This document shows positions 2,318 to 48,071 of a stretch of 64,000 bases of DNA, piece by piece (positions within the stretch are counted from its first letter, which is position 1; every line of letters starts with the position of its first letter). The translations under genes were made by a program, and so were the position numbers. Source of the DNA: Neoarius graeffei. Lineage: Eukaryota; Chordata; Actinopteri; Siluriformes; Ariidae. The notes below the pieces were generated by a model. That model had not been told where the DNA came from, made no database searches, and saw only the letters and a program-made list of their open reading frames with translations. The stretch is taken from positions 18,254,257 through 18,318,256 of the forward strand of contig NC_083583.1 in assembly GCF_027579695.1 (NCBI RefSeq), in the 5' to 3' direction.

Positions 2318-3942
2318 CACTGCTGCTGTCTTTCCTGTAGTTGCCTCTTCTTCTCTGCTACCAGGCGGGGGTTGGCAGGGTCAGTGCAGCAGGGGGCAAT
2401 GTGGCCATCTTCACCACAGTTAAAGCAGTACCAAGGCCGGGGTTTGTTTGTGGGTGTTTTCACAGACTGTCTGTTTGTGCTTGTATCTGGGCCGGTTGTC
2501 TTTGGTGTTCTGTTCTGAGGCCTCCCTGCAGATCCCTTGTGGTTAGCGCCCTGTGTCTTTTTCTGTGACATAAAGGTGGTAAGTTGGCTTTGCAGACTGG
2601 CCACTTGTTTTCACAGATCTTCAATCACATTGATGGCACCGGTGTTCTCCTCTGGTTCAAGAACATACACATCATGATAGTGGACCTGAGCTTTCTGCTT
2701 CGTGATGCCCATGTGTCTCTTCATGCGGGTGGACTTTGCTTCCTGTCGGTCTTCTTCAGAGCGAATCATTAACAGGAGGTCTGAAAAGTGGGGTGGGCTG
2801 TTTTTCTTTTGCTCTAGCTGCAGCGTGCTGATCAGGGTGTTATCCCAACACCCCCGGCAGAACTGCTTCAGGATGTGCTTGTCCCCCTCTTTGGGTGTAA
2901 CTCCCCCTCGTCGTGTGGCATGGTTTAGGGCCAACTGGAGTCGTTGCAGGTACGCGGATGACTTCTCACCGGGGTCTTGTAGGGTGTTGAGGAACTGGGC
3001 GAAGAGCTCTTCTCCATCTGCTACCGTGCCGTAGGCTGAGTCTAGCAGCTGTAGGTAGGCTGTAGGCAGTGATCCAGGCAGCAGGCCTTTAACAACATCC
3101 ACTGCTGGTGAGAGTAAGTTTTCAAGGATCTTTCTGGATATCTGCAGGGGTGACATGCTGGGGTCATTCTGTAACATCTCAATGTGCGTGCGCCATGTGT
3201 CGTAGTCAGTCTCATGGTTAGGTATGGGGGTCTTGCCAGAGAAGGAGCGGAGTCTCACTTGGGACTGCATGTGAGGGAAGGCGTCTTGGCTCCGTACAAT
3301 GTGCTCGACCACAACCTTCTGGATGTCAGGTGGGTTCACATCACTTAGGGAAAGGGACGGTGCTCTCTTAGCATTGGCTAGTGTGGTATGATCAGCATCT
3401 CCATGGCCGTTTGGTGTAACATTGGGAAGTGAGATGTGGGGTGGTTCTTTATAAGTTGGTATGGATGGGGCTGTGGTCTCGACATGTGCAGAGGAGGGCT
3501 CGTCAACTGTGTGTTGCATGGCTTCTATGTCTACTCCTATCTGGGACATCATCTCTTTTAAGACCTCTCCATAATTTTTGCCACTCATCTTAGCTAGTCG
3601 CTTGAGCTCAGTTAAGTATGTTTTGGTAACATTACAGCCAACTTTGGTAGTGTACGTGCTACTGAGTGGTTTAACTTCATAAAGGGAGGGAAATTCACCT
3701 TGTGTCGTGTAAGTGTATGGTAAGTGAGGCTCTAAGGTTTCGATAGCTGAACCGCTAGAATACTCAACAATCAGATTTTGGAAGAATTCGGACTGTTGGT
3801 CTTCAACTAAAAGTACTCTATCAATTTTACCATATTGTTTAAGGAAATCAAGGACTTGTTCGTCTTGTTCGGGTACCTGAGTTATCCCACTAACTAAAAC
3901 AGCATTTGGAATTTTGACACCAGACTTCTGTATAAAATCCAT
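2278..3942 (-). pseudogene. Gag polyprotein, PNMA-like, with zinc knuckle; one in-frame stop
   Basis: Gag forms the capsid of the retrotransposon particle. I start it at the ATG 3940-3942 (MDFIQKSGVKIPNAV...), which aligns in position with the start of PNMA-family proteins; the frame is open further upstream but without an ATG. Residues about 1-80 resemble the PNMA N-terminal RRM-like fold. The middle (around RLRSFSGKTPIPNHETDYDTW) resembles the PNMA capsid region. The C-terminal part has a CCHC knuckle, CFNCGEDGHIAPCC. A TGA at 2611-2613 interrupts the frame just before the zinc-knuckle segment, and the frame then continues to TAA at 2278-2280. The PNMA relationship is known for domesticated gypsy gags (PNMA, ZCCHC12); here it is my reading of the sequence. 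Confidence 0.85.
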
Positions 3943-4172
3943 ATTAGTAATAACAGATTGCTGCTCAATATTGCTGCACAAACAATTGGCTCCTGGCTGG
4001 CTCGCCACTTCTGTAACCAAGCTTTGCAATTAAGAAAAGGGTGAATTACAGTAAATATATATATCAGAAAGCCTGAAACTAATACTATGGACCTGATATC
4101 AGAAGAACTAACATTCGCAAGGAGCCAATGGAATGCAACAATAATGAGACAACAAGGATATTCTTTTTGAGT

Positions 4173-4280
4173 AAATACTCGTATATTGTATACCAAAAAA
4201 GTTATAAATAACCCAACCAAATAGTGGGTGAATACTTATATATTGTATACAAAAAAAGTTATAATTAACCCAACCAAATA
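4173..4280. repeat. Two-copy tandem repeat in the gypsy leader
   Basis: Copies at about 4173-4223 and 4231-4280 share AATACT..TATATTGTATAC, AAAAAAGTTATAA and TAACCCAACCAAATA in the same order. They lie in the untranslated leader between LTR and gag. Confidence 0.8.
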
Positions 4281-4594
4281 ATAAAAATAAAAATAGTGTG
4301 CACACTATGAAAAGAAATGAATTGTCCCCGGGGCCCTTAAACGAAATAAAAAAATGGCAAAAATATAAAGTTGGTTCCCAAGTTCGAATTGTAGGGTACT
4401 TGTGTGAATAGGTGTATATGTCAGAAGGTTCACTTGAAGGGACGGCTCGCCATCGGGGTGACTGGAGGAATCCGGGACCACAGTTGTAGTTCAAACTATT
4501 GTAAACGTTGCTCGGTTGATGAATTTCACCGCAGATCTCTGGACGGACGGGGCAGTTAGCCGACTTCTCGTGGTTAATGCGCTCTCTGGGGGGA

Positions 4595-4990
4595 TGTTAC
4601 GACACTTGTTTTTTTCCTTTTCACCGGTTAAGTTTTTTTTTTTAGCGGTTTCTTACTAGCTCACTCAGGTGACGGTTCTTGATGGTGATGTTTCTAACGG
4701 CTAACGTAACTTAGCGGCTCTGTTTAGTTCTGCAGCGTGAGCCCGAACGTGACTTGCGTAGCCTCTGATTGGCTGCTGATGTTACGCAGCTAGTTGTGTG
4801 AGACATGTGGTGCCATGGAAATAACAATTCGCTGATGGAAACGAGTAAATGGTTCAAAATAAAAGTATCTATTCTGTGTATTCTGTGGATTGTATGTAGT
4901 GTGTGGGTAGTATACTGGGTAGTTTACTCTGTGTGTGCGTGTGTGTGTGTGCGTGCGTGTGTGTGTGTGTGTTTCTAACCCCTGGTTACA
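4595..4990 (-). repeat. 5' LTR of the gypsy element
   Basis: The minus-strand sequence begins TGTAACCAGGGG and ends TGTCGTAACA, the TG...CA ends expected of an LTR. The outer edge is set by comparison with the intact MITE copy, where the sequence runs CGGTTACTTATAATG without interruption; GTTAC at 4991-4995 is the likely 5 bp target duplication. The LTR contains a (GT)n tract at about 4932-4972. I could not match the following bases (4594 downward) to a particular tRNA primer site. Confidence 0.75.
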
Positions 4991-5310
4991 GTTACTTATA
5001 ATGACTAGAACTGGAGTCGTATAGATGTACGTACTTCCTCACTTCCTCGATCAACCGCTCTTCGTGCTGCTCCATCTTTGCTCGTGTTTTTAAAAATGGC
5101 GGTCGTGAAAACAAACCAAACCGGGAAAGTAGGGAAGCGGATGTAGAGTGGACCAATCAGAGCCCTCTTGTCTGCGACGCTGTCTGCAAGGCTTCTGCGG
5201 TGGTCACAATTTTTGGGAGGTGTGCGCAGAGCGTCTGCGAAGGGGGGAGCTATGCAGACACCATCTGGGACGCCATCTGCGAGGACTGCGTTGTCAGCAT
5301 AAATTGGCCT
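4991..5310 (-). mobile_element. Harbinger-type MITE, copy 1 (cut by the gypsy insertion)
   Basis: It is about 95% identical by eye, in inverted orientation, to 7260-7590. Its terminus AGGCCAATTTATGCTG (read on the minus strand from 5310) is preceded by TTA (5313-5311), the 3 bp target typical of PIF/Harbinger. The other end is missing because the gypsy LTR sits at 4990. It carries the same MADF exon as copy 2. Confidence 0.75.
4992..5075 (-). pseudogene. MADF-domain first exon retained in the MITE (copy 1)
   Basis: ATG at 5075-5073 opens a 27-codon frame, MEQHEERLIEEVRKYVHLYD followed by SSSSHYK and a stop. This matches the beginning of MADF (Myb/SANT-like) DNA-binding domains, which PIF/Harbinger elements encode as their second protein. 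The frame ends where a 5' splice site could lie (A|GTAAC). Copy 1 has the MADF-like LYD where copy 2 has LYN. Confidence 0.55.
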
Positions 5311-5313
5311 TAA

Positions 5314-5870
5314 CTCATCCGCGGCCCCGACATGCGGTGTGTGCATGCGCACTCGGCGGAGGCAGCAGTGTGTCGGGCCGTCGGAGGGAACAGAAGCAGA
5401 AATAACACTTATTTTGTCTCCAGTAAACCAGTCTTCTCTCGTTCAATTACATGCTGGCATCAAAAGACACCGTTGGTTGTAAATGAAACCAAACTGAGTC
5501 GTTGGAGTGTATTTTCATACACAAATGGAGAAATGTTCGCTGAGTGTTTAATTGTGTAGCCCCCACTGCAGACCGTTGTCGTTGTTAATTCATAGCATGC
5601 TCAGTTGCGTGAATGTGTCATGCACCGAAAATAAGAGATTTACAAGCCAGGAACGCCTCATGATGCAATACGCAAGAAAAGAAAGAAGATTTACTGCCAT
5701 TTTACTTTGTATTTGAGTAAAGTGAATAAATAAATGGTCTGTGGAAAATACATTTAATCCTGGGAACTGCGTGCACAGGAGTTTATTTTGTGTTTACTCC
5801 CAATCAATTCTGGAGAAATTCAGACTTTATAATGGGTGTCTATGGCGTTACACTTCAGTGGAGCTCGTTA
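5314..5870. other. Unclassified sequence between two transposons
   Basis: I see no gene, splice-flanked exon or recognisable repeat end here. There is a CpG-rich stretch at 5315-5400 and AT-rich sequence afterwards. The part from 5760 resembles sequence resuming after the hAT at 6620, so 5.7-7.2 kb is probably one old unclassified repeat. Confidence 0.4.
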
Positions 5871-5878
5871 AGGTAAAG

Positions 5879-6611
5879 CAGGGGTGGGCAATTATTTTTT
5901 CCATGGGGCCACATGAGAAACAGAAAATTTTGTGGCGGGCCGGACCAAAAGGCTGAACTAAAAATTCTGCGTAATATTAATTGTATTTCTTTATATAAAG
6001 CAGTAAATAACATTGTTTTTACAAGCTGCTAAGACTGGTAAGAGTATGGAAAAAACGAGGTTGCCTTACAAAAAAAAAGGTCATTTATTCAATCAAATTT
6101 CCCAAAACAATGGTTAACAAAATGTGAACATTTGTACCATTTTTTTTCAGTCACATTCACCCCAAAACACAATAAAGACATCACAATATTGTCTTTCTAC
6201 TCCAAATATCAAACAAGATACATCATATTATAATAATGATGCCGTGTCGATTTAGTGTAGGTATCAGATCTACAGATCGGCTCGGGGTCTGGCGCTTGCT
6301 GGTGACATCACACTATGTGATTGGCTGGACCGTTTGAAGGATGACGTACAAGTTTGTGGTTGGTCTGGACAAATTACTGAAGTAGTTATCGCGGGATTAG
6401 GTTTCGTGGGATTTCATGTCATGTAAATGTCGCGCACATTGCGTTTTTGTTGAACACAACTTCAAAATAAAAGCAATGCACATTCAGTCCATGCATGAGG
6501 TAAAATTAGAAAATACATTTATTTTGTAATTTCTAATTAACCTTACGCGGGCCGGACAGAATGAACCAAAGGGCCGGATGCGGCCCGCGGGCCATAAAAT
6601 GCCCAGGTCTG
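5879..6611 (+). mobile_element. Non-autonomous hAT element, 733 bp
   Basis: The ends are CAGGGGTGGGCAATTATTTT and AAAATGCCCAGGTCTG. They are flanked by an 8 bp target duplication, AGGTAAAG (5871-5878) and AGGTAGAG (6612-6619), one mismatch. The CGCGGGCCGGACAG...CGGCCCGCGGGCC motifs near the right end are typical of this fish hAT type. No transposase frame is present. Confidence 0.9.
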
Positions 6612-6619
6612 AGGTAGAG

Positions 6620-7256
6620 TGTAGAGAGCTTGAAAAAGTAGCTCAAACTTTCTCATTTAAACTGTGTTTTCAGCCACAAATTTCACTCTACAGACATCAT
6701 TTTCTCAAAAGTGGGAGTCACACTTGTCTTGATTCACACAATGTGTCTACCTGAGCGATAGGATTTACAGTTTTTGAATGAGAAGCCTGAAAGTAACAAG
6801 AGGACAGGCACGCTGCCCCATTGACTCCCATTATAATCCTGACAGCGCTTTTACTACAAAATCACTTGTTTTTAACTCGCTCTATTGTCCACATTTTTTA
6901 CACTAGAGACAAAAAATTACATCAATGTGTTCGTGAGAGCCTTGTAGCGCTCAATGTGAAAGAATTTTGTGAATAGCTCCTTTCGTTTCCGTGTAAATCA
7001 CCATTGTTCGAGGAGAAGGAACTCTGAGAAAAAGTGCTCTTTGCTTGTCATATTGTGTCTCTTCCCTGCACCTGAGCACCGTTACCAAGGCGACGAGCTG
7101 CACTCAGGGAGCAGAGAGGGGAGGGGCTGCTCTCTCTCTCTCTCAAACACACACAGGCTCAGAGCATCGGAGCATCGGAGCCTCATAGCCTGCGATAGCG
7201 GCTGCTACGCGCACTGCATCACTCTCACCATTTCCCACAGGGGAATTGTCGTCTCC
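6620..7256. other. Unclassified repeat-like sequence
   Basis: This continues the sequence broken by the hAT at 5879-6611. It contains a short (TC)n run at about 7130-7144 and a small GAGCATCGGAGCATCGGAGC duplication at about 7162-7180. No coding signal is convincing. Confidence 0.4.
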
Positions 7257-7259
7257 TTA

Positions 7260-7772
7260 AGGCCAATTTATGCTGACAACGCAGTCCTCGCAGATGGCGT
7301 CGCAGATGGCGTCTGCGTAGCCCCCCCACCTTCGCAGACGCTCTGCGCGCACCTCCCAAAAATTGTTACCACCGCAGAAGCCTCGCAGACAAGAGGGCTC
7401 TGATTGGTCCACTCTACATCCGCTGTACACGCACTTCCGCTTCCCTACTTTCCCGGTTTGGTTTGTTTTCACGACCGCCATTTTTAAAAACATGAGCGAA
7501 GATGGAGCAGCACGAAGAGCGGTTGATCGAGGAAGTGAGGAAGTACGTACATCTATACAACTCCAGTTCTAGTCATTATAAGTAACCGGAGGATAAACAC
7601 TCCACTAACCACACCCACCAACTACTCCTAGCGATTTTGCGACTTCGCGCCCCCTTGCGTTGTGGCAGTGAATAACATCGCGCACGCCTATTACTCCCTG
7701 CTCAACGATAAATTACAACTGTCTGCGAAAAGCTATCTGCGAAAGCCTTGTCGCAAGAGCATGCAGAGGCCC
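7260..7772 (+). mobile_element. Harbinger-type MITE, copy 2, complete (513 bp)
   Basis: The left end AGGCCAATTTATGCTG and right end CATGCAGAGGCCC are imperfect inverted repeats. TTA at 7257-7259 and 7773-7775 is a 3 bp target duplication. Both subterminal regions carry repeats of the type TCGCAGATGGC/TCGCAGATAGC. The interior holds a promoter-like region (ACTTCCG, CGCCATTTTT) followed by a MADF-like exon. Confidence 0.8.
7502..7585 (+). pseudogene. MADF-domain first exon retained in the MITE (copy 2)
   Basis: The ATG at 7502 opens 27 codons (MEQHEERLIEEVRKYVHLYN then SSSSHYK) ending at TAA 7583-7585. The sequence has the L-I-x-x-V-R-K-Y...L-Y-(N/D) signature with which MADF domains begin. 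The remaining domain is absent, so this is a retained exon rather than a working gene. A CGCCATTTTT (YY1-like) motif lies about 25 bp upstream. Confidence 0.55.
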
Positions 7773-12500: not shown

Positions 12501-12875
12501 ACTCCGCTTGCTGGCTGGGGGCCACTTAATCCGCTGCTATGGAATTACTCTGCTGGGATTGGGAGGCTCAGGTATGTGGAGGGACTGGGCTCTGTGGTTT
12601 GCCTCCTGGCCGGGCGCCTCCTGCGTCTCACCAGGTTCTGGACCTGTGTGTTGTACCTCAATCTCCTGCTCCAAGCATTTCATTCTGGCCTGATGGATTT
12701 TCAGGCCACGCTGGTTCTTGCACAGCTTTCCGCAAATGCATGTCACATTCATCATCTGTCCATTTGCATGGGTCGTCAACATTTGGTCCGTCCGATTGGA
12801 GATCTCATCCTCCCCCCCTTTCAGGATCTCCTGGGGGTATCTCACTGTAGGGCTTTCCGTAGCTTGTTTGGTCAT
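9518..12875 (-). pseudogene. R2-like RT-endonuclease polyprotein, nearly intact
   Basis: The protein nicks target DNA and reverse transcribes the element RNA. From the N-terminus: a C2HC finger CICGKLCKNQRGLKIHQARM (about 12760-12700); a basic linker (12419-11950); the RT entry motif SASAPGPSGIP (about 11880); the A motif VVLWLDLTNAYRSIPH; the catalytic box AYMDDLTVTTT (about 11200); a CCHC knuckle CLLCSGRGSLEHLLSCC (about 10180); and a restriction-like endonuclease core RPDVVITSEASKYLIILELT. The last 764 codons (11812-9518) are open. Breaks are a stop at about 11871 just after GPSGIP, a frameshift in a C-rich run near 11965-11980, and a break between 12419 and 12537. Confidence 0.8.
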
Positions 12876-13088
12876 TTATTTATTGAGGAAAATGATCCAA
12901 TATTAAATATCTGTGAGTGACAAAAGTATGTGAACCTCTAAGATGAGCAGTTAATTTGAAGGTGAAATTAGAGTCAGGTGTTTTCAATCAGTGGGATGAC
13001 AATCAGGTGTGAGTGGGCACCCTGTTTTATTTAAAGAACAGGGATCTATCAAAGTCTGATCTTCACAACACGTTTGTGGAAGTGTATC

Positions 13089-14171
13089 ATGGCACGAACA
13101 AAGGAGATTTCTGAGGACCTCAGAAAAAACGTTGTTGATGCTCATCAGGCTGGAAAAGGTTACAAAACTAAAGAGTTTGGACTCCACCAATCCACAGTCA
13201 GACAGATTGTGTACAAATGGAGAAAATTCAAGACCATTGTTACCCTCCTCAGGAGTGGTCGACCAATAAAGATCACTCCAAGAGCAAAGCGTGTAATAGT
13301 CAGCAAGGTCACAAAGGACCCCAGGGTAACTTCTAAGCAACTGAAGGCCTCTCTCACATTAGCGAATGTTAATGTTCATGAGTCCACCATCAGGAGAACA
13401 CTGAACAATGGCAGGGTTGCAAGGAGAAAGCCACTGCTCTCCAAAAAGAACATTGCTGCTGGTCTGCAGTTTGCTAAAGATCACGTGGACAAGCCAGAAG
13501 GCTATTGGAAAAATGTTTTGTGGACAGATGAGACCAAAATATAACTTTTTGGTTTAAATGAGAAGCATTATGTTTGGAGAAAGGAAAACACTGCATTCCA
13601 GCATGCACCTTAACACCTTATCCCATCTGTGAAACATGGTGGTGATAGTATCATGGTTTGGACCTGTTTTGCTGCATCTGGGCCAGGATGGCTTGCCATC
13701 ATTGATGGAACAATGAATCCTGAATTATACCAGTGAATTCTCAAGGAAAATGTCAGGACATCTGTCCATGAACTGAATCTCAAGAGAAGGTGGGTCATGC
13801 AGCAAGACAACGACCCTAAGCACACAAGTCGTTCTACCAAAGAATGGTTAAAGAAGAATAAAGTTAATGTTTTGGAATGTCCAAATCAAAGTCCTGACCT
13901 TAATCCAATCGAAATGTTGTGGAAGGACCTGAAGCGAGCAGTTCATGTGAGGAAACCCACCAACATCCCAGAGTTAAAGCTGTTCTGTATGGAAGAATGG
14001 GCTAAAATTCCTCCAAGCTGGTGTGCAGGACTGATCAGCAGTTACCAAAAACATTTAGTTGCAGTTATTGCTGCACAAGGGGGTCACACCAGATACAGAA
14101 AGCAAAGGTTCACATATTTTTGCCACTCACAGATATGTAATATTGGATCATTTTCCTCAATAAATAAATGA
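13089..14171 (+). pseudogene. Tc1-like transposase (element A), inactivated
   Basis: The DDE transposase cuts and rejoins the element. The frame starts at ATG 13089 (MARTKEISEDLRKNVVDAHQ) with the N-terminal helix-turn-helix region. The first catalytic Asp is in WTDETK, the second in MQQDNDPKHTS, and the third acidic residue in DLNPIEMLW, about 35 residues further on. In-frame stops occur at 13542-13544, in a 6 bp insertion near 13611, and at about 13735; the last one is shared with copy B and so is ancestral to both. The protein is otherwise close to full length. Confidence 0.9.
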
Positions 14172-14321
14172 CCAAGTATAATATTTTTGTCTCATTTGTT
14201 TAACTGGGTTCTCTTTATCTACTTTTAGGACTTGTGTGAAAATCTGATGATGTTTTAGGTCATATTTATGCAGAAATATAGAAAATTCTAAAGGGTTCAC
14301 AAACTTTCAAGCACCACTGTA

Positions 14322-15620: not shown

Positions 15621-15650
15621 AACAAGGTCATAATTGTCATATTTTTCATT

Positions 15651-16312
15651 TCAAAATTCTCCATACATTCTCTGTTGGGGACAGAGGGGACAGTCACTCT
15701 CTTCTTCCACTGACATGCCTTTGTAATGTGTGCAGAATATGGGTTTGCAATGTCTTGTTGAAATTTCCCTGGAAAAGATGTAATTTTGAAGGCAGCATAT
15801 GTTGCTCAAAAAGCTCAACGTACTTTTCTGCATTAATGCTGCCATCACAGAAGTGTAAGTTAGCTTTGCCGAGGGCACTGACACAACCCCATACCATGAC
15901 AGACCCTGGCTTTTGGACTTGTTGCTGGTAACAGTCTGGATGGTCTTTTTCATCTTTGGTCTCGAGCACAAGGTGTCCATTTCTTACAAAAAAGACCTGG
16001 AATACTGATTCATCTGACCACAGTACATGTGTCCACTGTGTGATGGTTCATCCCAGATGTCTCAGAGCCCAGAGAAGTCATTGACACTTCTGGATAGCGT
16101 TAACATAAGGCTTACTTTTTGCAAAGTAAAGATTTAACTGGCATTTGTGGATATAACTTGGTATTGTAGTGTTTGACAAAGTAATCCTGAGCCCATGTGG
16201 TTATATCAGCTATAGATGAATGACGGTTCTTGATGCAATGCCGTCTGAGGGATCGGAAATCATGGGTGTTCAGCTTAAAGCTCACAGGCAACAGTTTTAA
16301 TTTTATGCACAT
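15651..16312 (-). pseudogene. Tc1-like transposase (element H), fragments
   Basis: The minus strand encodes LRRHCIKNRHSSIADITTWA (about 16240-16180), typical of the second helix-turn-helix, and downstream SVMVWGCVSALGKANLHFCD (about 15900-15840), the block before the second catalytic Asp. The following INAEKYVELFEQHMLPS is also typical of this Tc1 group. Frameshifts and stops are numerous. The N-terminus lies across the Kolobok insertion at 18540-18752. Confidence 0.8.
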
Positions 16313-16892
16313 TTAAAACTTTATATGTTAAAAAAACCCTCTGTAATGTTCTCCTGGTCCCAAGAAGTATTGTTAATAAGTAATAATTAAAATAAGTTAG
16401 TGCAGATCATGGCGAATTTCCGTTCGGATATTTTCATGACCACTCGGCACGTGACGTCATTTAAGCCAAACAAACCGCTTGAGTTGAGTCCACTTCTGTT
16501 TAGGGCAATTCCATGTAAATGTCAACCTCACCATGCAAAAATAAAGCAACATGTAATACATCAAAACCACTCCCAGAGATATCACCTAGGCCTGTATTTT
16601 ACAGATGTGAATAAGTTGAACCAATTTGTAACCAACCTAATGTGTCACTGTCAGCCTTTCTTTCTTATAATGTAAAACCCAAGCTAAAATCAACTTTGAT
16701 CATGTACAATTCTATATTATTGCCACAAGCCACAGAAATGTATGCAAAAATCCACAAAACAGCAAAACAATAGCCATCCTAAATATTATTTAAGAACTTT
16801 GATAGTTTTAGCTGATATTTAGAGAGTTTTTCAAAGGGTTATGGTGGTTAAATTGCTGATTTTCTAAACATATGCCATGTCTATTTCAGACG

Positions 16893-17300
16893 CGTCACAT
16901 CCATAACGGAATTTCGTCACATCCATAACGCTGACTTTTCCTTCCGAAACTCTGCATGAAATACAAAATATTTTAAACAAAGATTTTTTAATATTCACCT
17001 TGGACCCCTCTATCAAATGGATATCTCCATTTCGACATTAGGTTTACAATTTCACAGAGTTTGATAAAAATGTACAGTCACCCAAGAAAAGTGATACTTT
17101 TTCTGTCACGTCCATAACGCATCTTTTATTGGCGTTTTCTGGCATGCCCTAGATGTACTATGGGAATTGTTCTTGTTCTATCACTTCTCCAGTATGGTAC
17201 AGCCTTAAAATATGCAACACCTGTTTAAATACTGGGAGACAATAAAACATGCACTGGGTCATTTGTTGCCATTTTGAGTTCAAGTGTCATGTCCATAACG
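16893..17300 (+). promoter_or_regulatory. Four direct copies of GTCAYRTCCATAACG upstream of the THAP exon
   Basis: The copies start at about 16894, 16916, 17105 and 17286 and share GTCA(C/T)(A/G)TCCATAACG in the same orientation. The last copy lies about 75 bp before the ATG. Such arrays may be transposase or THAP-binding sites; that is inference. Confidence 0.6.
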
Positions 17301-17375
17301 CTGGAATTGCTCACTACTTACATTGCCGTTCGGCTTGAGTGCAGACGTGGGTTCAGGAATTTCCAAAGAAAAACC

Positions 17376-17780
17376 ATGCCTTATTGTTGTGCAGTGAACT
17401 GTAACAACAGGATCTGTTCAGGAAGAAGTTTTTACCTTTTTCTGAGAGAGGAGAAGAGGCAGAGAGAGTGGGTTGGCTTTTTCTGAAAAAGGAGAAGAGG
17501 CAGAGTGAGTGGGTTTGCTTTTTCCGAAAGAGGAGATGAGGCAGAGAGAGTGGATTGTGTGCGTGAAGCCAGAGGGTTGTTTTTTCCAGAAGAGGCGGAG
17601 AGAGTGGATTGTGCGCGTGAAGTCAGAGGGTTGGCTTTTTCCGGAAGAGGAGAAGAGGCGGAGAGAGTGGATTGTGCGTGTGAAACAAAATCAAGCAGTC
17701 AAAGAAGAAACGGACCAGCAACGCTCAAGTAAAAAGGAGAAGATTGGAAATAAACATTTTTACTTTTGCTTGCAATTGAC
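17376..17780 (+). pseudogene. THAP-domain first exon, expanded by tandem repeats
   Basis: ATG at 17376 gives MPYCCAVNCNNRICSGRSFY then LFLREEKRQREWV, the N-terminal half of a C2CH THAP zinc finger (C-x3-C pair, Ser/Phe core, R-x-x-x-W). A stop follows at 17484-17486 because the next sequence is a tandem duplication of the exon's 3' part. The last unit again encodes EEEKRRREWIVRVKQ. The second Cys-His pair of the finger is absent. Confidence 0.65.
17445..17690 (+). repeat. Tandem repeat inside the THAP exon
   Basis: Five units of unequal length (roughly 40-70 bp) each contain TTTTTC, then GGAGAAGAGGC or GAAGAGGCGGAGAG, then AGAGTGG. Each unit re-encodes the F-x-x-E-E-x-R-x-R-E-W segment. Confidence 0.85.
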
Positions 17781-18752
17781 AAGTCAAGAATCCTGAGGGA
17801 TCCTGTACAATCATTGTGGAAATGAGACAAAGGGATATTTCCTCGCTTAGAGTCGGCTATAAATAGTATAATGCTGTGGATGGCAGGCTAATGTGGCCTA
17901 CCGGCACACTGTCAAGTAATCATTACCTATATCCACTAGTGAGGGCGGTTTAATTATTCTTCAAAAGGGCTCTTATTTAGTATTACAATGAAAGTAGGAA
18001 TTTATCATAACTACCAGGATAAATCGCTTGGGTGCGAGTCTTGTTGAGGTCCGGGGTCACCACGATCAGAGTCGGCCAAGTCACTGTCCAATTCCGAGGC
18101 TGCACGGTCAAATCAGTGAGCCACATTCACGGATTGCTTTGCAACAGCCATAGGTTCATACATATATGGTTTCACCTCTCGATATTCAATTTGGAGAGTT
18201 CCTACTTCAGAATCGCTATCGCTTTCAGACATTTTACACAACCTCTCATGACCAAAGTCCATACACGTGTGCTCGGTTCCCAAGTAAACACAGAACTGCT
18301 CCCAGTCTGTTTGGCTTAAATGATGTCACGACGACGGTCCCCTGGCGGTGAAAGTGCGCATAAGTGAGATGTAAACAAACCTTCGGAAATTGGGCAAAAC
18401 AGTATATTTTAACCATTTTATTCAATTTTAGGGTGCAAATTAGACACTAGGAAGATTGAATTCGCTTTTTGGGTTGTTCTTCTAGACAATAACGTTGATA
18501 TTCTACATTTCACCTCCGAGCGTTGCCTATGACCTTTAAGCTTGCACCGTTGCCCTTTATGCACTGAAACTCTTTCAGATTCCTTGAATTATTTAATGAT
18601 ATTATGCACCATAGAGGATGATGTATCCAAATCCTTTCCCAACTTTCTTTGAGGAATACTGTTATTAAACATTTCAATCATTGTCTCACACATTTCTTAG
18701 CAAACTGGAGATTCTTGACCCAGCTTTGCTTCTGAAAGACTAGGCCTTTCCT

Positions 18753-20400
18753 CAGGGGCGTCAGAAGCATTTTTAATGTGGGGGGGACACACTGGCAGGG
18801 GTCCTCCCCCAGAAAATTTTTAATTAATTAGATGCCATTTCCTGCATTCTGGTGTATTTTTAACAGGTTGTTAAACACGTAGTTTTATCTTCAAAAGTCA
18901 CTTAATTCAATGACTATTTTCGAGACTCAACAATAAGTCCTCATTTAACTAGTCCATATATTCATCAGCCTGTTTTTAAACCCACCGCTACGCCTAAGAT
19001 AATGAGATGAATGTGACACAATTTATCATCAACAGTGACTTGCCTGCGACCCTGTAGAATAGGATAAAGTGGCTAGAGAATGACTTTATGGGTGCATTTT
19101 ACTTTTTATTTTGTGTTTCCTTTTTTATTTAGTTTTAGATGTAACACAACATGCCACTGTGCCAAGCAATAGTGACACTCAACTGTATGTTTAAAAATAA
19201 GAATATTCATAATTTCACACAATGAACAGGCATGAAATGGCATCATGCAAACTTCATAACACAAAATCACACTGTGCCGAGCAACGGTGACACATAAAAA
19301 ACAACTTCACACAATGAACAGGTGCAATTTTGTTAACCACCAACAGTGACTTTAGTGGGTGCATTTTACTTTTTTCACACAAAATCACACTGTCAAGCAA
19401 TGACACATAAAAGAGAACTTCACACAATGAACAAGTGCAGTTCTGTCAACCTACATGCAATGGTGGTACTACAGTAACATTTACAGATTAGTATAACAAA
19501 TAGATTTATAGATATAACTCCTTACATTGGTGCCACCACAATTTCTACCACTTCATAACTTTTATCCCCCTTTCCTTCACAAACCACCTGGAATAACATC
19601 CATCTCTCTCCATTGCTTTCCTTTCTACTATTCCTTCCCCATACACTGATTTCCCATGTTACTTTCAAGAAAACTGGCAAAGACCAGACAAAACAAGTTC
19701 TTCAAATCACAACAAGGAATCAATAAATATCATCAGAGCAGACTTGACCTCATTCTTGGCATTACAATAAGGTAGGCCTACTGGGGTTGAATTAAATAAT
19801 AGCTAACAATAAGCTAGTTGATACATCTCCTAACATTGACTAACCAGCTAACTGAACTAACATTTCCATTGTGGGGAAATTTTGTCCTGTGGGGAAATTT
19901 TGACTTACTTTCCACTTCTTTGTAAAGAATGTCCTTATGTCCATTGTGTCTGGGGAGGGAGCAAATACTGCAAACAATTCATCATCAATCAAGAATACCC
20001 CATTAGGCTAAGCTTATTTCATTGTTTAGTTGAACATTAATTTAACGTGGCCTAGGGTTAATTTTGAGGGCATATCACAAAAGAATAAGGTTTTAGCAAA
20101 AGCCAGACATTGTGAGGTGGCAATGGGGCTGACGTCACCTCCTCCACTTTCCAGCAGCTGCACCAAAAATGTCTCCGCTCGCGCTGAGATTCACTCGCGC
20201 GTGGTGAGCTGTTGTAGGGAACGCCCGGAAAACCCGGAGTGGAGTTTCAGTGGGATGTGTATTCTCTTATCGATCAAGTGGAATGGATTCTTTCACGAAG
20301 CAATAGAAACGGCGCTGGGTGAACTAATATTTTATGTTAAATGTGTGTGTGTGTGGGGGGGGGGTCCAAATGAAGAATTATGAAATGTGAGGATGACACG
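18753..20400 (-). mobile_element. Long repeat element E, copy 1 (left arm of large inverted repeat)
   Basis: It starts CAGGGGCGTCAGAAGC at 18753, preceded by CCTTTCCT (18745-18752). It is about 99% identical by eye over long stretches to the reverse complement of 22465-24146. Its inner terminus is lost near 20400. The interior contains several diverged copies of TTCACACAATGAACAGG and of ...AAAATCACACTGT. No protein is recognisable. Confidence 0.85.
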
Positions 20401-20456
20401 GAGGACCCCCCTCCCCCCTTTATTTAGTCACAGCATGGCCACCCCTTGTATATCTT

Positions 20457-22220
20457 CCCAGATAGCAGAGGGTCGTTGATTCGACGTGGAATCATCGGCA
20501 TGTTCTTCGACCTATACGCCGTCGAATCACCGTCGATCACCGACGTTGATTCAACACCGCTTTGCTCATACGAGTTTCCGTTGAAACGACGTTGAAAAGT
20601 GGCTGGTGGTCGACAGAGAATAGACCCCCTTTCACCCTTTATTCAACTACGTATTTCGGTCGATTTATAGTTGAATTTTCGGCGATGATTCATCCAACTT
20701 TACTTCCTGTTTTATGTACAACAGGAAGGCTACAAATTAAGCAAAACAGGCTAAATTAAACTAGCTAACAATAAAGCATCGGGGCTCTTGCCTAGGATGA
20801 ACACACACATGCATACTTCAACCATGAAAGTGAAACTTAATTTATGTCAATGTGCGTAGGCTACGGCCTGTTTTATGTACAACAGGATATAAAAATGCAT
20901 GCAACAATGCACCTCTCCTAATGTTTGTCAAGCTATCTAATGAGGCATAACTTTTAACATTTATAAGGAACAGAACACACTTGAACAAGTTCTTAGAAAC
21001 ATTTTATGATTTATTTATAATTGTGGCCTATTCCTCCTGCGGCGCAGACACCTGTACATGGAAACAGAAAAACATAACCAAAATTAATTTGATGCAGCAT
21101 TGATAAAGAAAGTCAGCAGTAGGCTATGGGTTTCTAAATGCCACCCTACCTCATTATTTGGACATGGGGAAAAACTATATTTAAAATCCAAAGAGGGATG
21201 GAGGGAGGAAAATTAAAACAAAAGAAAGAAATGAAATATAGAGTAGAGAATATTTGATAAAATTAAGGATGTTTTTATTCAGTAAACATTTAAAAAAATG
21301 TTCTACAACACTCTAGCCTAGTGACTTACCAGTAACAACATAGACTTGAAGTATTCAGATCCGCTCTGCATAAAGCAGCTAAATCCTCTCTCTGTCTCCC
21401 GGCAGAAAGCTCCTTGGTTTGCTTGTGTCTCAATCACAGCTGGTATTCTGTAGAAAGACTTCTTTTCACCTTTCCCATCAGCTTTGTTAGAACCCTAACA
21501 CAGCACAAAAGTTTACCATTGTAGGTTTATGATGAACCAAGTGCCTCGTGGGTTCACATACCGCGCGCTGCCTTTATTTCCCCCAAATCACGAGTTTATT
21601 GGTCTTCCAATGTGGCGCAGGGTTTGTTTACTTCCGGTTTCGGGTGACGTCAGTGAAAGGGGTCTAATGGGGGCATTACCGCCACCCACTGGATTGGGGT
21701 GTAAAGCAGTCTGAACAAAACGTGTAAACATAAACATAGGAGAAATGAACCCGTTTTTCTAACTCGTCCTCACTTAGTCTACTTTTCTTTTTTGATTAGT
21801 CTGGATTTGATATTGTAAATTTAAATGTGAATCAATGTATATTCATCGGACATGAACAAATGAATAAATCTTGAGTAATCTTGAGGGGCGTGTGTGTCCG
21901 GGGCGCGGTGTCGCGGGGGGGATCGAACGAACCCTCCGATCCCCCCTGGCTACGGGCCAGAATTAGTTGCTCATCCTACCAATGTTGAAAACTGGCCGGC
22001 AAAAGTGACGATGGTTCAACGTCGTATATTCAACCTTCTCTGACGGTCGACAGATCAACCTTTACCCACGTTGATTCAACGGTGATAAATCGACCCTCTC
22101 AGACGGCGGAGAAATCGACGTTTCACGGCGCCGTTTCAACGTTGATTTTCTGACATACGACGGAAACCGACCATTCTGACCAAAACTCTACGTCGTTTCA
22201 ACAACCCTCTGCTATCGGGG
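20457..22220. mobile_element. DNA transposon Y with GTTGATTCAACG-type subterminal repeats
   Basis: The ends are CCCAGATAGCAGAGGGT and ACCCTCTGCTATCGGGG. Many short words built on GTTGATTCAACG/CGTCGAAT lie within 120-200 bp of each end in both orientations, as in CACTA/EnSpm-group fish elements. I found no clear target duplication and no coding sequence. About 1.4 kb of the centre is AT-rich and unremarkable. Confidence 0.6.
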
Positions 22221-22427
22221 TTTGGCCTCCCTTTGGCCACCCCATGTAAAAAATCCTGGCTACGCCACTGCATTTCAGGCTTGCAATACATTCCAAGAAA
22301 AGTTAGGATGGGGCAATTTAGCACAAGTAGTAAGGTAAAACAATTCAGGAATGATATGATTTGAAACAGGTGATGTCAACAGGTGATTATAATCATGATT
22401 TGGTACAAAATTAGTATCCAGGAAAGG

Positions 22428-22538
22428 CATGGGCGTCGCCACCATTGAATGTGAAGGGGACGTGTCCCCCTCACATTTCATAATTCTTCATTTGGAGCCC
22501 CCCCCCACATTTCATAATTCTTCATTTGGAGCCCCCCC

Positions 22539-22569
<31 letters not shown>

Positions 22570-24146
22570 ACATTTAACATAAAATATTAGTTCACCCAGT
22601 GCCTTTTCTATTGCTTCGTGAAAGAATCCATTCCACTTGATCGATAAGAGAATACACATCCCACTGAAACTCCACTCCGGGTTTTCCGGGCGTTCCCTAC
22701 AACAGCTCACCGCGCGCGAGTGAAGTGAATCTCAGCGCGAGCGGAGACATTTTTGGTGCAACTGCTCGAAAGTGGAGGAGGTGACGTCAGCCCCATTGCC
22801 ACCTCATAATGTCTTGCTTTTGCTAAAACCTTATTCTTTTGTGATATGCCCTCAAAATTAACCCTAGGCCTCGTTAAATTAATGTTCAACTAAACAATGA
22901 AATAAGCTTAGCCTAATGGGGTATTCTTGATTGATGATGAATTGTTTGCAGTATTTGCTCCCTCCCCAGACACAATGGACATAAGGACATTCTTTACAAA
23001 GAAGCAGAAAGTCAGTCAAAATTTCCCCACAGGACAAAATTTCCCCAAATGTTAGTTCAGTTAGCTGGTTAGATGTATCAGCTAGCTTATTGTTAGCTAT
23101 CATTTAATTCAACCCCAGTATACCTACCTTATTGTAATGCCAAGAATGAGGTCAAGTCTGCTCTGATGATATTTATTGATTCCTTGTTGTGATTTGAAGA
23201 ACTTGTTTTGTCTGGTCTTTGCCAGTTTTCTTGAAAGTAACATGGGAAATCAGTGTATGGGGAAGGAATAGTAGAAAGGAAAGCGATGGAGAGAGATGGA
23301 TGTTATTCCAGGTGGATTGTGAAGGAAAGGGGGATAAAAGTTATGAAGTGGTAGAAATTGTGGTGGCACCAATGTAAGGAGTTATATCTATAAATCTATT
23401 TCTTATACTAATCTGTAAATGTTACTGAAGTACCACCATTGCATGTAGGTTGACAAAACTGCACTTGTTCATTGTGTGAAGTTCTCTTTTATGTGTCATT
23501 GCTTGACAGTGTGATTTTGTGTGAAAAAAGTAAAATGCACCCACTAAAGTCACTGTTGGTGGTTAACAAAATTGCACCTGTTCATTGTGTGAAGTTGTTT
23601 TTTATGTGTCACCGTTGCTCGGCACAGTGTGATTTTGTGTTATGAAGTTTGCATGATGCCATGTCATGCCTGTTCATTGTGTGAAATTATGAATATTCTT
23701 ATTTTTAAACATACAGTTGAGTGTCACTATTGCTTGGCACAGTGGCATGTTGTGTTACATCTAAAACTAAATAAAAAAGGAAACACAAAATAAAAAGTAA
23801 AATGCACCCATAAAGTCATTCTCTAGCCACTTTATCCTATTCTACAGGGTCGCAGGCAAGTCACTGTTGATGATAAATTGTGTCACATTCATCTCATTAT
23901 CTTAGGCAGAGCAGTGGGTTTAAAAACAGGCTGATGAATATATGGACTAGTTAAATGAGGACTTATTGTTGAGTCTCGAAAATAGTCATTGAATTAAGTG
24001 ACTTTTGAAGATAAAATTACGTGTTTAACAACCTGTTAAAAATACACCAGAATGCAGGAAATGGCATCTAATTAATTAAAAATTTTCTGGGGGAGGACCC
24101 CTGCCAGTGTGTCCCCCCCACATTAAAAATGCTTCTGACGCCCCTG
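22428..24146 (+). mobile_element. Long repeat element E, copy 2 (right arm of large inverted repeat)
   Basis: The left end CATGGGCGTCGCCACC and right end GCTTCTGACGCCCCTG are related inverted repeats. The left flank is AGGAAAGG (22420-22427), the reverse complement of the flank of copy 1. Near 22478-22555 a 36 bp segment (CACATTTCATAATTCTTC...) is duplicated, followed by a long C run and a (CA)n tract. Probably a non-autonomous hAT-like element; superfamily not certain. Confidence 0.8.
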
Positions 24147-24149
24147 GTG

Positions 24150-24395
24150 TGTTATATGTGAATATAGAAATGTAATGCATGAGTGGTGTGTGGGTGAGTG
24201 TGTGTTCAGAGTGCATGAGTGGTGTGTGTGTTGAGAGTGCACGAGTGTTGTGTATACCAGTGAGTGTGTTACATGTAAATATAGAAATGTAGTGCATCAT
24301 GCATGAGTGGTGTGTGTGTGTGTGTGTAAGAGAGGATGTGTGTTGAGAGTGCATGAGTTGTATCTTATAGTGAGTGAGAGAAAGACATAGTGTGT
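24150..24395 (+). repeat. Irregular minisatellite, left part
   Basis: Repeated blocks GTTA(T/C)ATGT(G/A)AATATAGAAATGTA are separated by GCATGAGTGGTGTGTG-type spacers and (GT)n runs. The same array resumes at 27260 after the TTAA MITE. Confidence 0.8.
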
Positions 24396-24960
24396 GTTAA
24401 AGGCGTCGTGCGGTAATTTCAGCAATCAGGCTATATCATGTGTCAAAATGTCGGATTTGGTGGGTTATTCAAGCCCCTCGGTTTCCCGTGATCTTAGTGT
24501 CACGATGCGCCCACTACAAGCATTTAAAGTTGACGCGCACAGCCAAATTTAGGCAGCCAGCCGTTAACTAGGTCAACTTATGTGTGACGTCATACCAGTA
24601 ACCTCCCTTGGGTGATGCTGGCCTGTCGCCATGTTTTCTCTATAGTGTGCGTTTACCAGAGTTGTTTACATTGCGGATTTTGTGGATTTATTCAGTTTGT
24701 GGATAGTTTTGAACACTCAAAACACTATGAAATGATGTATTAATATTCTGTGATACAAAATGCTTAATCGGTGTATTGTGTTTGGCTGTAACAACGAACA
24801 CTGAACACTATTTGTGACTGTTGTTATCAATGGATCTGATTTCAAGGTCATGGCTAGGTATTGATAGAAAAAAATATTTTTTAAAAAACACATGTTTTAA
24901 GTGTTTCTATGTATCAATCATTAATTGTACAAAATGATTTTCATACATTTATGTATTTGT

Positions 24961-26327
24961 TAGGGTTGGGCGGTATCCAAATTTTGATACCTTTAAACTG
25001 TCTCTGTGTTTTCCCGGGGTATACGGTATTACCGAGAAAAAAATAATATTTTGTTTCGGCCTACTGTGTAACGTGCGCCTATGCCTCAAATGTACTATTT
25101 AAAAGCAGCATAGCGAATTGTGTGCATTGTGGTATGGATTAAGCAGCAAAGCGAATTTTGTGCATTGATGAATGGATTAAGAGATATTTCAAAGCATCAC
25201 GCAACTCTTCCTTCATCTTGAAAATAGCATTCAACTGTCGTTTACACATGTCTGCGTTGAAACGCATTTGCAGCACTATTTCACCTACTCCATCAAAAAA
25301 AAGTACACGATGAGCAGGATCATACCCTTTCAAGCATGGGAAATAAAAAAAAGAAAAGAAAAAGAATCAACCAACACCCAAGTCCGTTTAGACTGCGCGA
25401 TAAACCATATTCTTCAGCGCAAATGAGGCGAACCTAATTCAAATGCGTGATAGCTGCACAAGGCAAAATCATATGGGCCCACGTCATGCCATGGCGGGGA
25501 AATTAATAATCAAATGGCCTTACCTTGCTTAAAACGTTGTCTTGATCACATAACTCCTTACAATTATTCCACTTAAATCCATACGGTTTAACACACCCAA
25601 CAAAGATAGCAAGCGCATTGCTAATTCCCACCAGAAACCTAACAGTTTACGCTACGATGTTTTCTTCCGTTTCTTCAGTAGATGACATTTCAAACGTTTA
25701 TTACCCACATCCCAAATGTCATACGTTATATTATTTTACCTTGTTGTTACTCATGTAACCTACTCAAAACACAACTCATTGGAGAGATCTCGTGGAAGTG
25801 GAGTACCCCAGGCTATGGTGTGCCTTAGGGGACATATTAGATTTTTCGTTTGGTTTGAAACCAAAATACTGCCACACTGCCGATGTTGTATTTTTTTTTT
25901 TTTTTGCCACTAACTCGTTATCTTGACTTGCCATCTTTCAACCGCGGTCTCAGTCTCTCTTTTTTTTTTTTAGATAGGACAGTATAGAGAGACAGGAAAT
26001 GAGCGGGGGAGAGAGAGACGGGATCAGGAAATAACCTCGGGTCGGCTTTCTGTCAGAATCCAAATGTCACGCAGGGTTGCCATGGTAACGACATAAACAA
26101 CCCTGCACGCGATGAGAACTTCTTTAGGAAATTGATAGAATTAGTGAAAATACAATCACACAGTTATTCGGGATGATCTTCAATTTATTATTTTATATTA
26201 TGACCTCATGTACTCCATATTTATTTAGATATTATATATTTTTTTTAAATGACGGTAATGAGACCAATACCGTTGGTACTTTTGGATACCTCGGGATACC
26301 TTCTTACCGTAATACCGCCCAACCCTA
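24961..26327 (+). mobile_element. hAT MITE (TAGGGTTGGGCGGTAT ends), 1367 bp
   Basis: The ends TAGGGTTGGGCGGTAT and ATACCGCCCAACCCTA are inverted repeats. They have a perfect 8 bp duplication GTATTTGT (24953-24960, 26328-26335). It lies inside the TTAA MITE. Poly-T runs near 25890 and 25960 are the only internal landmarks. Confidence 0.95.
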
Positions 26328-26799
26328 GTATTTGTCATATCTTTCTTTGTCACATGAAGTGTTGTCTTGATAACATATGTGGCACATAATTTTAGCAAAT
26401 GGATGACAGAAGATTAATTGAAAGATTTATGCCACAGAGCTGCATTTAACTAATAATTATCACTTATTACTGACGATTGTACGTTTACTAAACAATGCAA
26501 TACAAAGCTCAATACTCCCAGCCTATAACGTACTGAATATCAAGTTAAAATCAACCGCAATAAAAGGAAAATGATGAAAACTGGAATATCAAGGGGTCTA
26601 CTGTATCAGAAGGCCCACTGCATTTCGCAAGATCGCAAGCTGTCAAGTTGCTAGAATTCAATCTTTCTAGCTATACTTTCACCCCCTACAGCTATCAGTA
26701 TTACACATAATCATAGATTAATCACACAGCATTCTAATTCAAGTGAAAATGGTCTTTAAAAATACACACAAGTAATGATTTAGTCAGAGAAACCAACCA

Positions 26800-27033
26800 A
26801 AACAAGTCTTCAAGTCGCCGGTCTTCTTCATTCTCGTCTTCGTTTCTGTCGTCGTCAGAACTGTCCTCATTTTCTTCTGAAGATGAGCGCTCAGGTTCAA
26901 ATCTGTAAGGCTGGATACCACCAGGACATTCAGCTGTCAAAATCTCTACTTGTGGGCCATTTTCTTCTTCTGTATCGGTAAAATCAAAGCTAATTTCCTC
27001 AGCATCACTCCTATTTTCTGGTGTGTCCGCCAT
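26800..27033 (-). pseudogene. Acidic first exon resembling P2X7-like (ballast-domain) transposon proteins
   Basis: ATG at 27033-27031 gives MADTPENRSDAEEISFDFTD..., then GGIQPYRFEPERSSSEENED and an Asp/Glu-rich run ending RRLEDLF. The IQPYRFEPE motif followed by an acidic stretch is how fish proteins annotated P2X purinoceptor 7-like (intracellular-domain only) begin; many of these are transposon-borne. A splice donor is plausible around 26803. The Cys-rich domain itself is absent. The assignment rests on one motif. Confidence 0.5.
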
Positions 27034-27259
27034 TGCAACTGCACCGAGTGGTTACTGGTATGACGTCACGCAGCTGTTCCATTGACCGAGAGGGGGCGCT
27101 GCAAACGCAGGAAATTTCAAGTGATGGGCATGACCAAATAAGGACCGATTACAACCGCGGGAAGCTTTTGAAAAATCGACGGTCAATTTATTTCGAATCT
27201 CGAAAGCATTCTGGTGCAGAATAATGCGACTTTTATCGCCACTGCATGACTCCTTTAAG

Positions 27260-27495
27260 AGAGTGAAGTATGTGTTCATACATGAGAGAGTGTTAAGACA
27301 GTGCATGAGTGTTACATTTAAATATAAAAATTTAGTGCATGAGTTGTGTGTCTGTGTTGAGTGTATGAATGTTACATGTAAATATAGAAATGTAGTGCAC
27401 AAATTGTGTGTGTGAGTGAGATAGACAGTGTGTTAAGAGAGTGCATAAGTGTTGTGTATGAGTGAGTGTGTTACATGTAAATATAGAAATTGTAT
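27260..27495 (+). repeat. Irregular minisatellite, right part
   Basis: At least three further units of GTTACATGTAAATATAGAAA occur with GTGCATGAGTGTT-type spacers. It is continuous with 24150-24395 apart from the inserted MITE. Confidence 0.8.
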
Positions 27496-27539
27496 TCTGC
27501 GGTTAGAGTGAGCAAAGTGATTCACAAACTCATCCAAGT

Positions 27540-27949
27540 TTAGGCATTTGGCTCGGCTAGACTCCACTCTGAATTGTCTGAGGACAGAATTGTAACTGTA
27601 TGTCTACAAAGTGAGAAAACTTGAAGAGAGTATGAGATGAATAACTTGCCTCCCAAATTAATCGCACGTTCACGTAGGTTGTGTTGTTGGACTAGACCAT
27701 GACTATCTGATGTCACGACAACCTGCTCATCCACCTGCTGCTTGAACGCGCAAAATGTTTGTGTGCTACGGTAATATGCATCCCCGCAGAAACCAAATAG
27801 GCGGAACAAAAATCCAGCGAGTGGAGCTAACATTTTGTGGGACATATCAGTTTTATAAATTTTATTGTCCAGCCCTGGGGTGGCCAGGGCGGGGCCAAGG
27901 CGTGCCCTGGGTTGCCACGCCCCCTGGCCACCCCTTAGCTCCGCCCCTG
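27540..27949. other. Right-hand body of element X
   Basis: The 27880-27949 stretch is G+C-rich (GGGTGGCCAGGGCGGGGCC and similar) and mirrors the left end's GGGGTGGCCAAAGGGAGGCC. A 101-codon minus-strand frame (27845-27540) has no motif I recognise. Confidence 0.5.
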
Positions 27950-28140
27950 CTGAAATGCAGGAATGGATGTACTAGTATATTAACAAATGGAATTAAGTTG
28001 ACCAGACAAAATATGAAATATCTTGGGTTCATACTGTCTGCAATGAAATACAAGTCAAAGTAAATTTAGAAATCACTGCTTTCTTTTTTTAATCTGCATT
28101 TTCCATACCATCCCCAACTTTTTCTGATTAGGGGTTGTAT

Positions 28141-28530
28141 ACACTGATTTACAATGACTGACAGGTGAAGTGAATAACATTTGATTATCTCATTACAATA
28201 GCACCTCTCAAGGGGTAGCATGCAAAGGCAGCAAGTGAACAGTCAGTTCTCAAAATTGATGTGTTAGAATCAGGAAAAATGGGCAAGGGAAAAGATCTGA
28301 ATGACTTTGACAAGGGCCAGATTGTGATGGCTAGACAACTAGGTCAGAGCATCTCCAAAACCTTACTGTGGGATGTTCCTGGTATGCAGTGATTAGTACC
28401 TACCAAAAGTAGTCCAAGGAAGGACAGCCAGTGAACTGATGACAGAGTCATGGATGCCCAAGGCTCACTGATGTGCAGGGGAAGTGAAGGCTAGTCTGTC
28501 CCACAAAAGACAGAACAAAGGACACCGATT
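28141..28530 (+). pseudogene. Tc1-like transposase, N-terminal fragment (element D)
   Basis: ATG at 28279 gives [28 protein letters not shown], the standard start of one fish Tc1-like transposase group. Stops begin about 30 codons in, and the frame is lost after 28500. It abuts the right end of element H. The rest of this transposon is missing. Confidence 0.8.
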
Positions 28531-48003: not shown

Positions 48004-48071
48004 AGTTATTCCACTCAATCTCATCGTACATGGCTTATAGCTGACTCAACACTACGCACCTCATCGGCTAT

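What the first reader, a model, noticed from the sequence alone, without database searches (positions are those of the whole stretch)
18745..27957. Inversion between two copies of one transposon, read from split target duplications
The Tc1-like element H is in four pieces. Its 22271-22427 piece lies in the wrong orientation. Flanking 8-mers prove the flip: copy 1 of element E has CCTTTCCT on its outer side (18745-18752), and copy 2 has the reverse complement AGGAAAGG on its inner side (22420-22427). The duplication of element X reads CATTTCAG at 22271 and CTGAAATG at 27950. Both pairs become ordinary direct target duplications, and H becomes continuous, only if the segment between the two E copies is turned back. 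The E copies are inverted, about 1.65 kb each and about 99% identical by eye, as expected for homologous recombination between them.
Basis: partly seen in the sequence, partly recalled or inferred. Interest (0 to 1): 0.75.

Follow-up and report, generated by a model that had tools for sequence, protein, structure and literature searches.

The report
Small inversion between two transposon copies
About three kilobases of a large genome appear to have been flipped by recombination between two nearly identical, oppositely oriented transposon copies, a well-known kind of event that can be reconstructed here unusually completely from the surrounding transposon debris.

Summary
Both 8-base pairs are exact and match only in reverse complement. 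The window's own 2.34-Gb genome could be searched. In 29 other copies of element H, the 22271-22427 piece lies opposite to its window orientation relative to its neighbour H2 in 29 of 29, and to H4 in 27 of 27 that have it. Reversed, it overlaps them by exactly 8 bases in 25 of 25 and 12 of 12 testable copies. Element X shows the same flip: in 12 of 13 nearby end pairs elsewhere its ends share a strand; here they do not. Other E copies have perfect direct 8-base duplications in 16 of 24. Changes private to each E copy switch sides near 19818-19828, as in chimeric copies, but the test is borderline (permutation 0.02-0.05) and nearest relatives of the halves do not swap. Best explanation: ectopic recombination between two inverted E copies turned about 3.2 kb around. 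Copy 1 also lacks the last 33 bases of E, and about 0.7-1 kb of X is missing beside it. An assembly flip is not excluded. The mechanism is known (Galileo, Drosophila buzzatii), so interest is low to moderate.

The parts
15621..16278 (-). Element H piece 1 (transposase-derived; 'Tc1-like' by recall)
   Evidence: translation; matched in 26 of the 29 other H loci; Pfam DDE_3 only E=0.06
16279..18535 (.). K: TTAA-flanked element inserted in H
18536..18752 (-). Element H piece 2; its last 8 bases CCTTTCCT are the E target site
18745..18752 (+). Target duplication CCTTTCCT of ancestral E copy 1, first half
18753..20400 (+). E copy 1 as it stands: outer part plus exchanged inner part; lacks the last 33 bases of the family's end
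19818..19828 (.). Best-fitting crossover interval in copy 1 (mirror in copy 2 about 23071-23081)
   Evidence: borderline statistics
20401..20456 (-). X left part, inner (inverted)
   Evidence: joined with 22221-22270 it matches 40 listed genome places at 93-98%
20457..22220 (.). F: inverted-repeat element inserted in X's left part; 36 other listed places at 97-99%
22221..22270 (-). X left end (CAGTGGCGTAGCC...), inverted
22271..22278 (+). CATTTCAG: inverted half of the X target duplication
22271..22427 (+). Element H piece 3, inverted relative to the rest of H
   Evidence: opposite to H2 in 29 of 29 and to H4 in 27 of 27 other copies
22420..22427 (+). AGGAAAGG: inverted half of the E copy 1 target duplication
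22428..24146 (-). E copy 2 as it stands: full length, both terminal repeats, mismatched flanks TAACACAC / CCTTTCCT
   Evidence: L042
24147..24400 (+). X interior, tandem GT-rich part; GTGTGTTA at 24147 is the outer flank of E copy 2
24401..27254 (.). Y: TTAA-flanked element inserted in X; its empty site is seen in L072. Z (24961-26327) is nested in Y with direct duplication GTATTTGT
27255..27949 (+). X right part and right end (CAGGGGCGGAGC... read inward)
27950..27957 (+). CTGAAATG: second half of the X target duplication
27950..28145 (-). Element H piece 4

Best explanation
A small inversion made by ectopic (non-allelic) homologous recombination between two inverted copies of one hAT-like element, E. 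Ancestral state (inferred): element H carried E copy 1 at CCTTTCCT and element X at CTGAAATG, and X carried a second, oppositely oriented E copy. A crossover within E, best placed at 19818-19828 and its mirror near 23071-23081, turned about 3.2 kb around. That exchanged the inner halves of the E copies and split the target duplications of E copy 1 and X and the body of H. Shown: the flip relative to the H and X families and the exchanged duplication of copy 1. Supported but borderline: chimeric E copies. Inferred: that it was a homologous crossover, the order of insertions, and that the chromosome itself, not only the assembly, carries the flip.
For: Exact reverse-complement 8-mers at both element boundaries. 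H piece 3 is opposite to H2 in 29 of 29 and to H4 in 27 of 27 other copies, with 8-base overlaps in 25 of 25 and 12 of 12 testable when reversed. Uninterrupted target sites in other H copies. X left and right ends lie on the same strand, in order, in 12 of 13 pairs within 10 kb; the 13th uses a left end that also has its own right end. Other E copies have perfect direct 8-base duplications in 16 of 24 with both ends found, whereas the window's full copy has 7 of 8 mismatched. Private substitutions: up to 19818, 9 in copy 1 and 2 in copy 2; beyond, 3 in copy 1 and 7 in copy 2, plus two deletions and a duplication in copy 2. One cut fits 18 of 22 merged events (permutation 4,140 of 200,000) or 16 of 20 in the strict set (10,541 of 200,000).
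Against: The mosaic statistic is borderline: 0.007 unmerged, 0.038 merged, 0.021 with indels, 0.053 in the strict set; the first two left out two changes private to copy 1 at 20393-20394. Nearest relatives do not swap between halves: in the outer part the two copies are each other's nearest (1.31%); in the inner part copy 2 is nearest to copy 1 (2.17%) and copy 1 to L044 (1.70%). Four states are shared by the two window copies only, which the hybrid-insertion rival also predicts. Mismatched flanks alone are not diagnostic: 8 of 24 other E copies have 1-7 mismatches, some apparently shifted by a base. Copy 2's own duplication cannot be checked, since one end is missing. Sequence alone cannot separate a real flip from an assembly flip.
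Confidence: 0.74

Rival explanations
1. Assembly artefact: the chromosome is not inverted, and the assembler joined the segment between two 1.6-kb inverted repeats the wrong way round.
For: A flip placed by the assembler inside E would give the same exchanged duplications and the same mosaic E copies. No read data were available.
Against: 38 contigs for 2.34 Gb and no N in the 64-kb window or in the 151,704 bases of the 41 loci held suggest, without proving, a long-read assembly. The arms differ at 28 sites and four indels besides the missing end, enough for long reads to tell apart.
Confidence: 0.13
2. Hybrid-element insertion (aberrant transposition): ends of E copy 1 on sister chromatids jointly inserted into X, creating the second E copy and the inversion in one transposase-driven step.
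For: E copies 1 and 2 share four states seen in none of 22 others, and in the outer part they are each other's nearest relative. The predicted layout of flanks is nearly the same; PMC2775673 section 10 (part 1 read) says the two models differ in identical versus chimeric copies.
Against: The private changes switch sides once along the element (borderline). The matching duplication at the X insertion point is not there, the E end being truncated. Other pairs of E copies share as many or more exclusive states (8 and 5).
Confidence: 0.08
3. Break repair or template switching without a crossover in E, with breakpoints that happen to lie in E.
For: The E/X junction at 20400/20401 shows a local loss of sequence, possibly at a short CACG present in both E and the X copy L074, so break repair probably acted here.
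Against: The two outer E ends and the 22428 end are exact terminal repeats, and both breakpoints fall in one family in opposite orientation, which chance breakage does not predict.
Confidence: 0.04

Closest known systems
Galileo-generated inversions of Drosophila buzzatii, above all 2z3 (PMC2775673; passages and section 10 part 1 read)
   Same: Two copies of one transposon in opposite orientation, exchanged target duplications, copies that look chimeric, crossover placed in a short interval, other insertions around the breakpoints.
   Different: Here the element is hAT-like with 8-base duplications, the inverted piece is about 3.2 kb inside nested transposons, the second copy's duplication cannot be read because one end is missing, the chimera test is only borderline, and no non-inverted chromosome was compared.
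Alternative-transposition inversions in maize (PMC8225341; search listing and start of abstract only; that the element is Ac, a hAT transposon, is recalled)
   Same: hAT-type transposon ends at inversion breakpoints.
   Different: There an aberrant transposition; here the evidence leans towards recombination between pre-existing copies.

Membership tests
Transposon-mediated ectopic-recombination inversion (criteria of PMC2775673) | Two homologous copies in opposite orientation flanking the inverted segment | tested here: met
Transposon-mediated ectopic-recombination inversion (criteria of PMC2775673) | Exchanged target duplications | tested here: met
   met for copy 1 (CCTTTCCT), with X (CTGAAATG) split in the same way; the pair of copy 2 cannot be read, as one end is missing
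Transposon-mediated ectopic-recombination inversion (criteria of PMC2775673) | Both copies chimeric | tested here: inconclusive
   one switch at 19818-19828, permutation 0.021 and 0.053; nearest relatives of the halves do not swap
Transposon-mediated ectopic-recombination inversion (criteria of PMC2775673) | Single uninterrupted target site in non-inverted chromosomes | not testable with these tools
   no second haplotype held; other H copies in the genome do show the sites uninterrupted
hAT-like non-autonomous element (E) | 8-base direct target duplications | tested here: met
   16 of 24 other copies with both ends found are perfect; the other 8 have 1-7 mismatches
hAT-like non-autonomous element (E) | hAT transposase gene or source element | not tested
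   the hAT label rests on duplication length and CAGGGGCG-type ends, recalled
Tc1-like element (H) | DDE transposase domain | tested here: inconclusive
   Pfam DDE_3 E=0.06, below cut-off; PAS_2 at E=0.0004 just passes its cut-off (21.5 against 21.4 bits) and is taken as spurious

The most novel reading that the evidence does not exclude
The inverted E pair is a switch that still flips: with arms about 98% identical and 2 kb apart, both orientations coexist in the population, so the locus would be a recurrent, transposon-made micro-inversion whose alleles can be typed by the exchanged target duplications.
Probability: 0.2. Interest if true: 0.4.

Novelty: new member of a known kind. Interest (0 to 1): 0.27.

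Why it matters
It is a well-resolved example of recombination between nested transposons in a large genome (a fish, by recall of its repeat families; no call names the species), with E, H and X all pointing to one flip. The same logic, split duplications plus family orientation, could be run over whole genomes to count micro-inversions that ordinary alignments may miss. No gene or function was shown to be affected.

Tried and rejected
Searches for relatives outside the genome found nothing: viral contigs by protein (five stretches matched a pattern, none confirmed) and by DNA patterns, bacterial and archaeal genome contigs, phages, plasmids and E. coli genomes, and paper text for six sequence strings. 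These collections are not where such DNA is expected, so the misses say little.

I considered that E copy 2 might be a natural part of X. Not favoured: next to the matching part of X, the loci L072 and L073 carry more X-type repeats and no E beyond a 41-base shared stretch, though neither locus reaches X's left end; and E has its own family with target duplications. L074 shows the right end of an E copy at another point of X.

I considered a single template-switch event that made the second E and the inversion together. Not favoured: the 24146 end is an exact terminal repeat.

Rows dropped: six of 28 other E copies (L065, L067-L071) were left out of the mosaic test for large insertions or missing ends; of the 22 kept, L047 and L050 had one end set from the match. 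Seven sites at which the window copies differ but which also vary among the others were not counted as private in the strict set. Deletions overlapping copy 2's two private deletions, but different from them, occur in some other copies. H loci L024-L026 give the same alignment coordinates and may be one event counted three times. The X pairing used the 40 listed left and 40 listed right places, one right place being the window's own, out of 242 and 239 first-look candidates.

A species name, the polymorphism state and read support were not obtainable.
Full report
WHAT WAS CHECKED. The window lies at G000:C15:18254257-18318256 of a 2.34-Gb genome in 38 contigs. The two E copies are inverted repeats at 18753-20400 and 22428-24146. 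Random 8-mers of this window coincide 77 times in 2,000,000 draws.

H, THE TORN ELEMENT. The 22271-22427 piece was searched in the own genome; 40 of 1,460 first-look candidates were scored and 30 loci were cut, one of them the window itself. In the 29 others the piece lies opposite to its window orientation, relative to H piece 2, in 29 of 29, and relative to H piece 4 in 27 of the 27 that have it nearby (two have no match to piece 4). When reversed it overlaps piece 2 by exactly 8 bases in 25 of 25 copies where both ends align, and piece 4 by exactly 8 bases in 12 of 12. The 8-mers there are CCTTTCCT in 26 of 26 readable copies and CTGAAATG in 17 of 18 readable, one reading TTGAAATG; readability required the match to reach that end, which favours agreement. 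So in the family the pieces are continuous, and each insertion duplicated 8 bases. L024-L026 may be one event. The split between pieces 1 and 2 is an independent TTAA-flanked insertion.

X, THE SECOND WITNESS. X's right part (27500-27949) matched 40 main places, the window's own included. Its left end, with insertion F left out, matched 40 listed places at 93-98%. Thirteen left-right pairs lie within 10 kb: 12 are on the same strand with left before right, and the 13th uses a left end that also has its own right end. In the window the left end is on the minus strand and the right end on the plus strand. The five shortest same-strand pairs span 1,916 to 2,095 bases; the other seven span 3,008 to 7,169. 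The window's X pieces add up to about 1.05 kb. In L074 the comparable stretch between the junction site and the part next to E copy 2 is 739 bases. So about 0.7-1 kb of X's interior is missing here; the tandem repeats in X make the figure rough.

E, THE RECOMBINING ELEMENT. A search with the full copy gave 28 other loci. Both ends were found in 24; 16 of 24 have perfect direct 8-base duplications, and the other eight have 1 to 7 mismatches, some apparently shifted by one base. The window's full copy (22428-24146) has TAACACAC on one side and CCTTTCCT on the other (7 of 8 mismatched), as a recombined copy should; mismatched flanks alone are not unique to it. In 26 of 28 other copies the right end was found and reads like the 22428 end, so copy 1 lacks the last 33 bases. 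Copy 1's broken end meets X where E and the X copy L074 both read CACG. I infer a deletion there that removed the end of E, its duplication and X interior; its timing relative to the inversion is unknown.

THE MOSAIC TEST. Against 22 alignable other copies (six of 28 left out), the substitutions private to one window copy are, up to 19818, nine in copy 1 and two in copy 2; beyond 19818, three in copy 1 and seven in copy 2, one of these seven in a duplicated stretch. Two deletions and a duplication private to copy 2 also lie beyond 19818; a 5-base insertion there is shared with L054 and L066 and was left out of the strict set. A single cut at 19818/19828 fits 18 of 22 merged events when polarised by three copies with indels (permutation 4,140 of 200,000) and 16 of 20 in the strict set (10,541 of 200,000). 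Earlier counts without indels gave 746 of 100,000 unmerged and 3,782 of 100,000 merged, but left out the two copy-1 changes at 20393-20394. This is what a crossover between a more mutated E in H and a less mutated E in X would leave. Against it: nearest relatives do not swap between the halves (outer: the two copies are each other's nearest at 1.31%; inner: copy 2 is nearest to copy 1 at 2.17%, copy 1 to L044 at 1.70%), and four states are shared by the two window copies only. The chimera is therefore suggested, not proven.

MECHANISM. Shown: the flip relative to two independent families, and exchange of the duplication of E copy 1. Suggested: chimeric E copies with a crossover near 19818-19828. 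Inferred: homologous recombination as the agent, and the order H, then E and X in H, then E in X. Turning the roughly 3.2-kb piece back restores direct duplications for E copy 1 and X and continuity for H at once.

LIMITS. An assembler that flipped the segment between the inverted arms would produce the same sequence. No N was seen in the window or in the 151,704 bases of the 41 loci held, which suggests long reads but does not prove them. No second haplotype or related species is held. The names Tc1-like, hAT-like and fish rest on recalled features; the Pfam scan was weak.

COMPARISON. PMC2775673 (passages and part 1 of section 10 read) sets out the criteria: opposite orientation, exchanged duplications, chimeric copies. 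The first is met, the second is met where it can be read, the third is inconclusive. The kind of event is well known. I found no report of this particular inversion, but searched papers only with general terms and one set of strings.

Noticed in passing
window 20457-22220: F, an inverted-repeat element inserted in X's left part: 36 other listed places at 97-99% identity, so a young family; its flanks suggest a duplication of only about two bases (TT).
   Followed up: partly
window 16279-18535 and 24401-27254: Two TTAA-flanked elements (K in H, Y in X); Y's empty site with a single TTAA is visible in L072. Z (24961-26327) is nested in Y with a direct 8-base duplication GTATTTGT.
   Followed up: partly
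L074 1-315: The right end of an E copy sits in the left part of another X copy, so E has entered X at more than one place.
   Followed up: partly
L049 and L055 (C28, about 86 kb apart): Two E copies share the same unmatched flanks GACATATG / GATGAGAA, as if one had been rearranged and the region then duplicated.
   Followed up: no
window 24147-24400 and 27255-27512; L072-L074: X carries internal GT-rich tandem units that differ between copies.
   Followed up: no
window 12870-14319 and 50699-52182: Two direct copies of another element, 94-97% identical in blocks, 37.8 kb apart; recombination between them would delete the interval.
   Followed up: no
window 4991-5144 and 7433-7586: A 154-base inverted repeat, 97% complementary, with 2.3 kb between the arms, possibly the ends of another element.
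   Followed up: no
window 48026-48505 and 55709-55946: Tandem arrays with 60-base and 14-base spacing.
   Followed up: no
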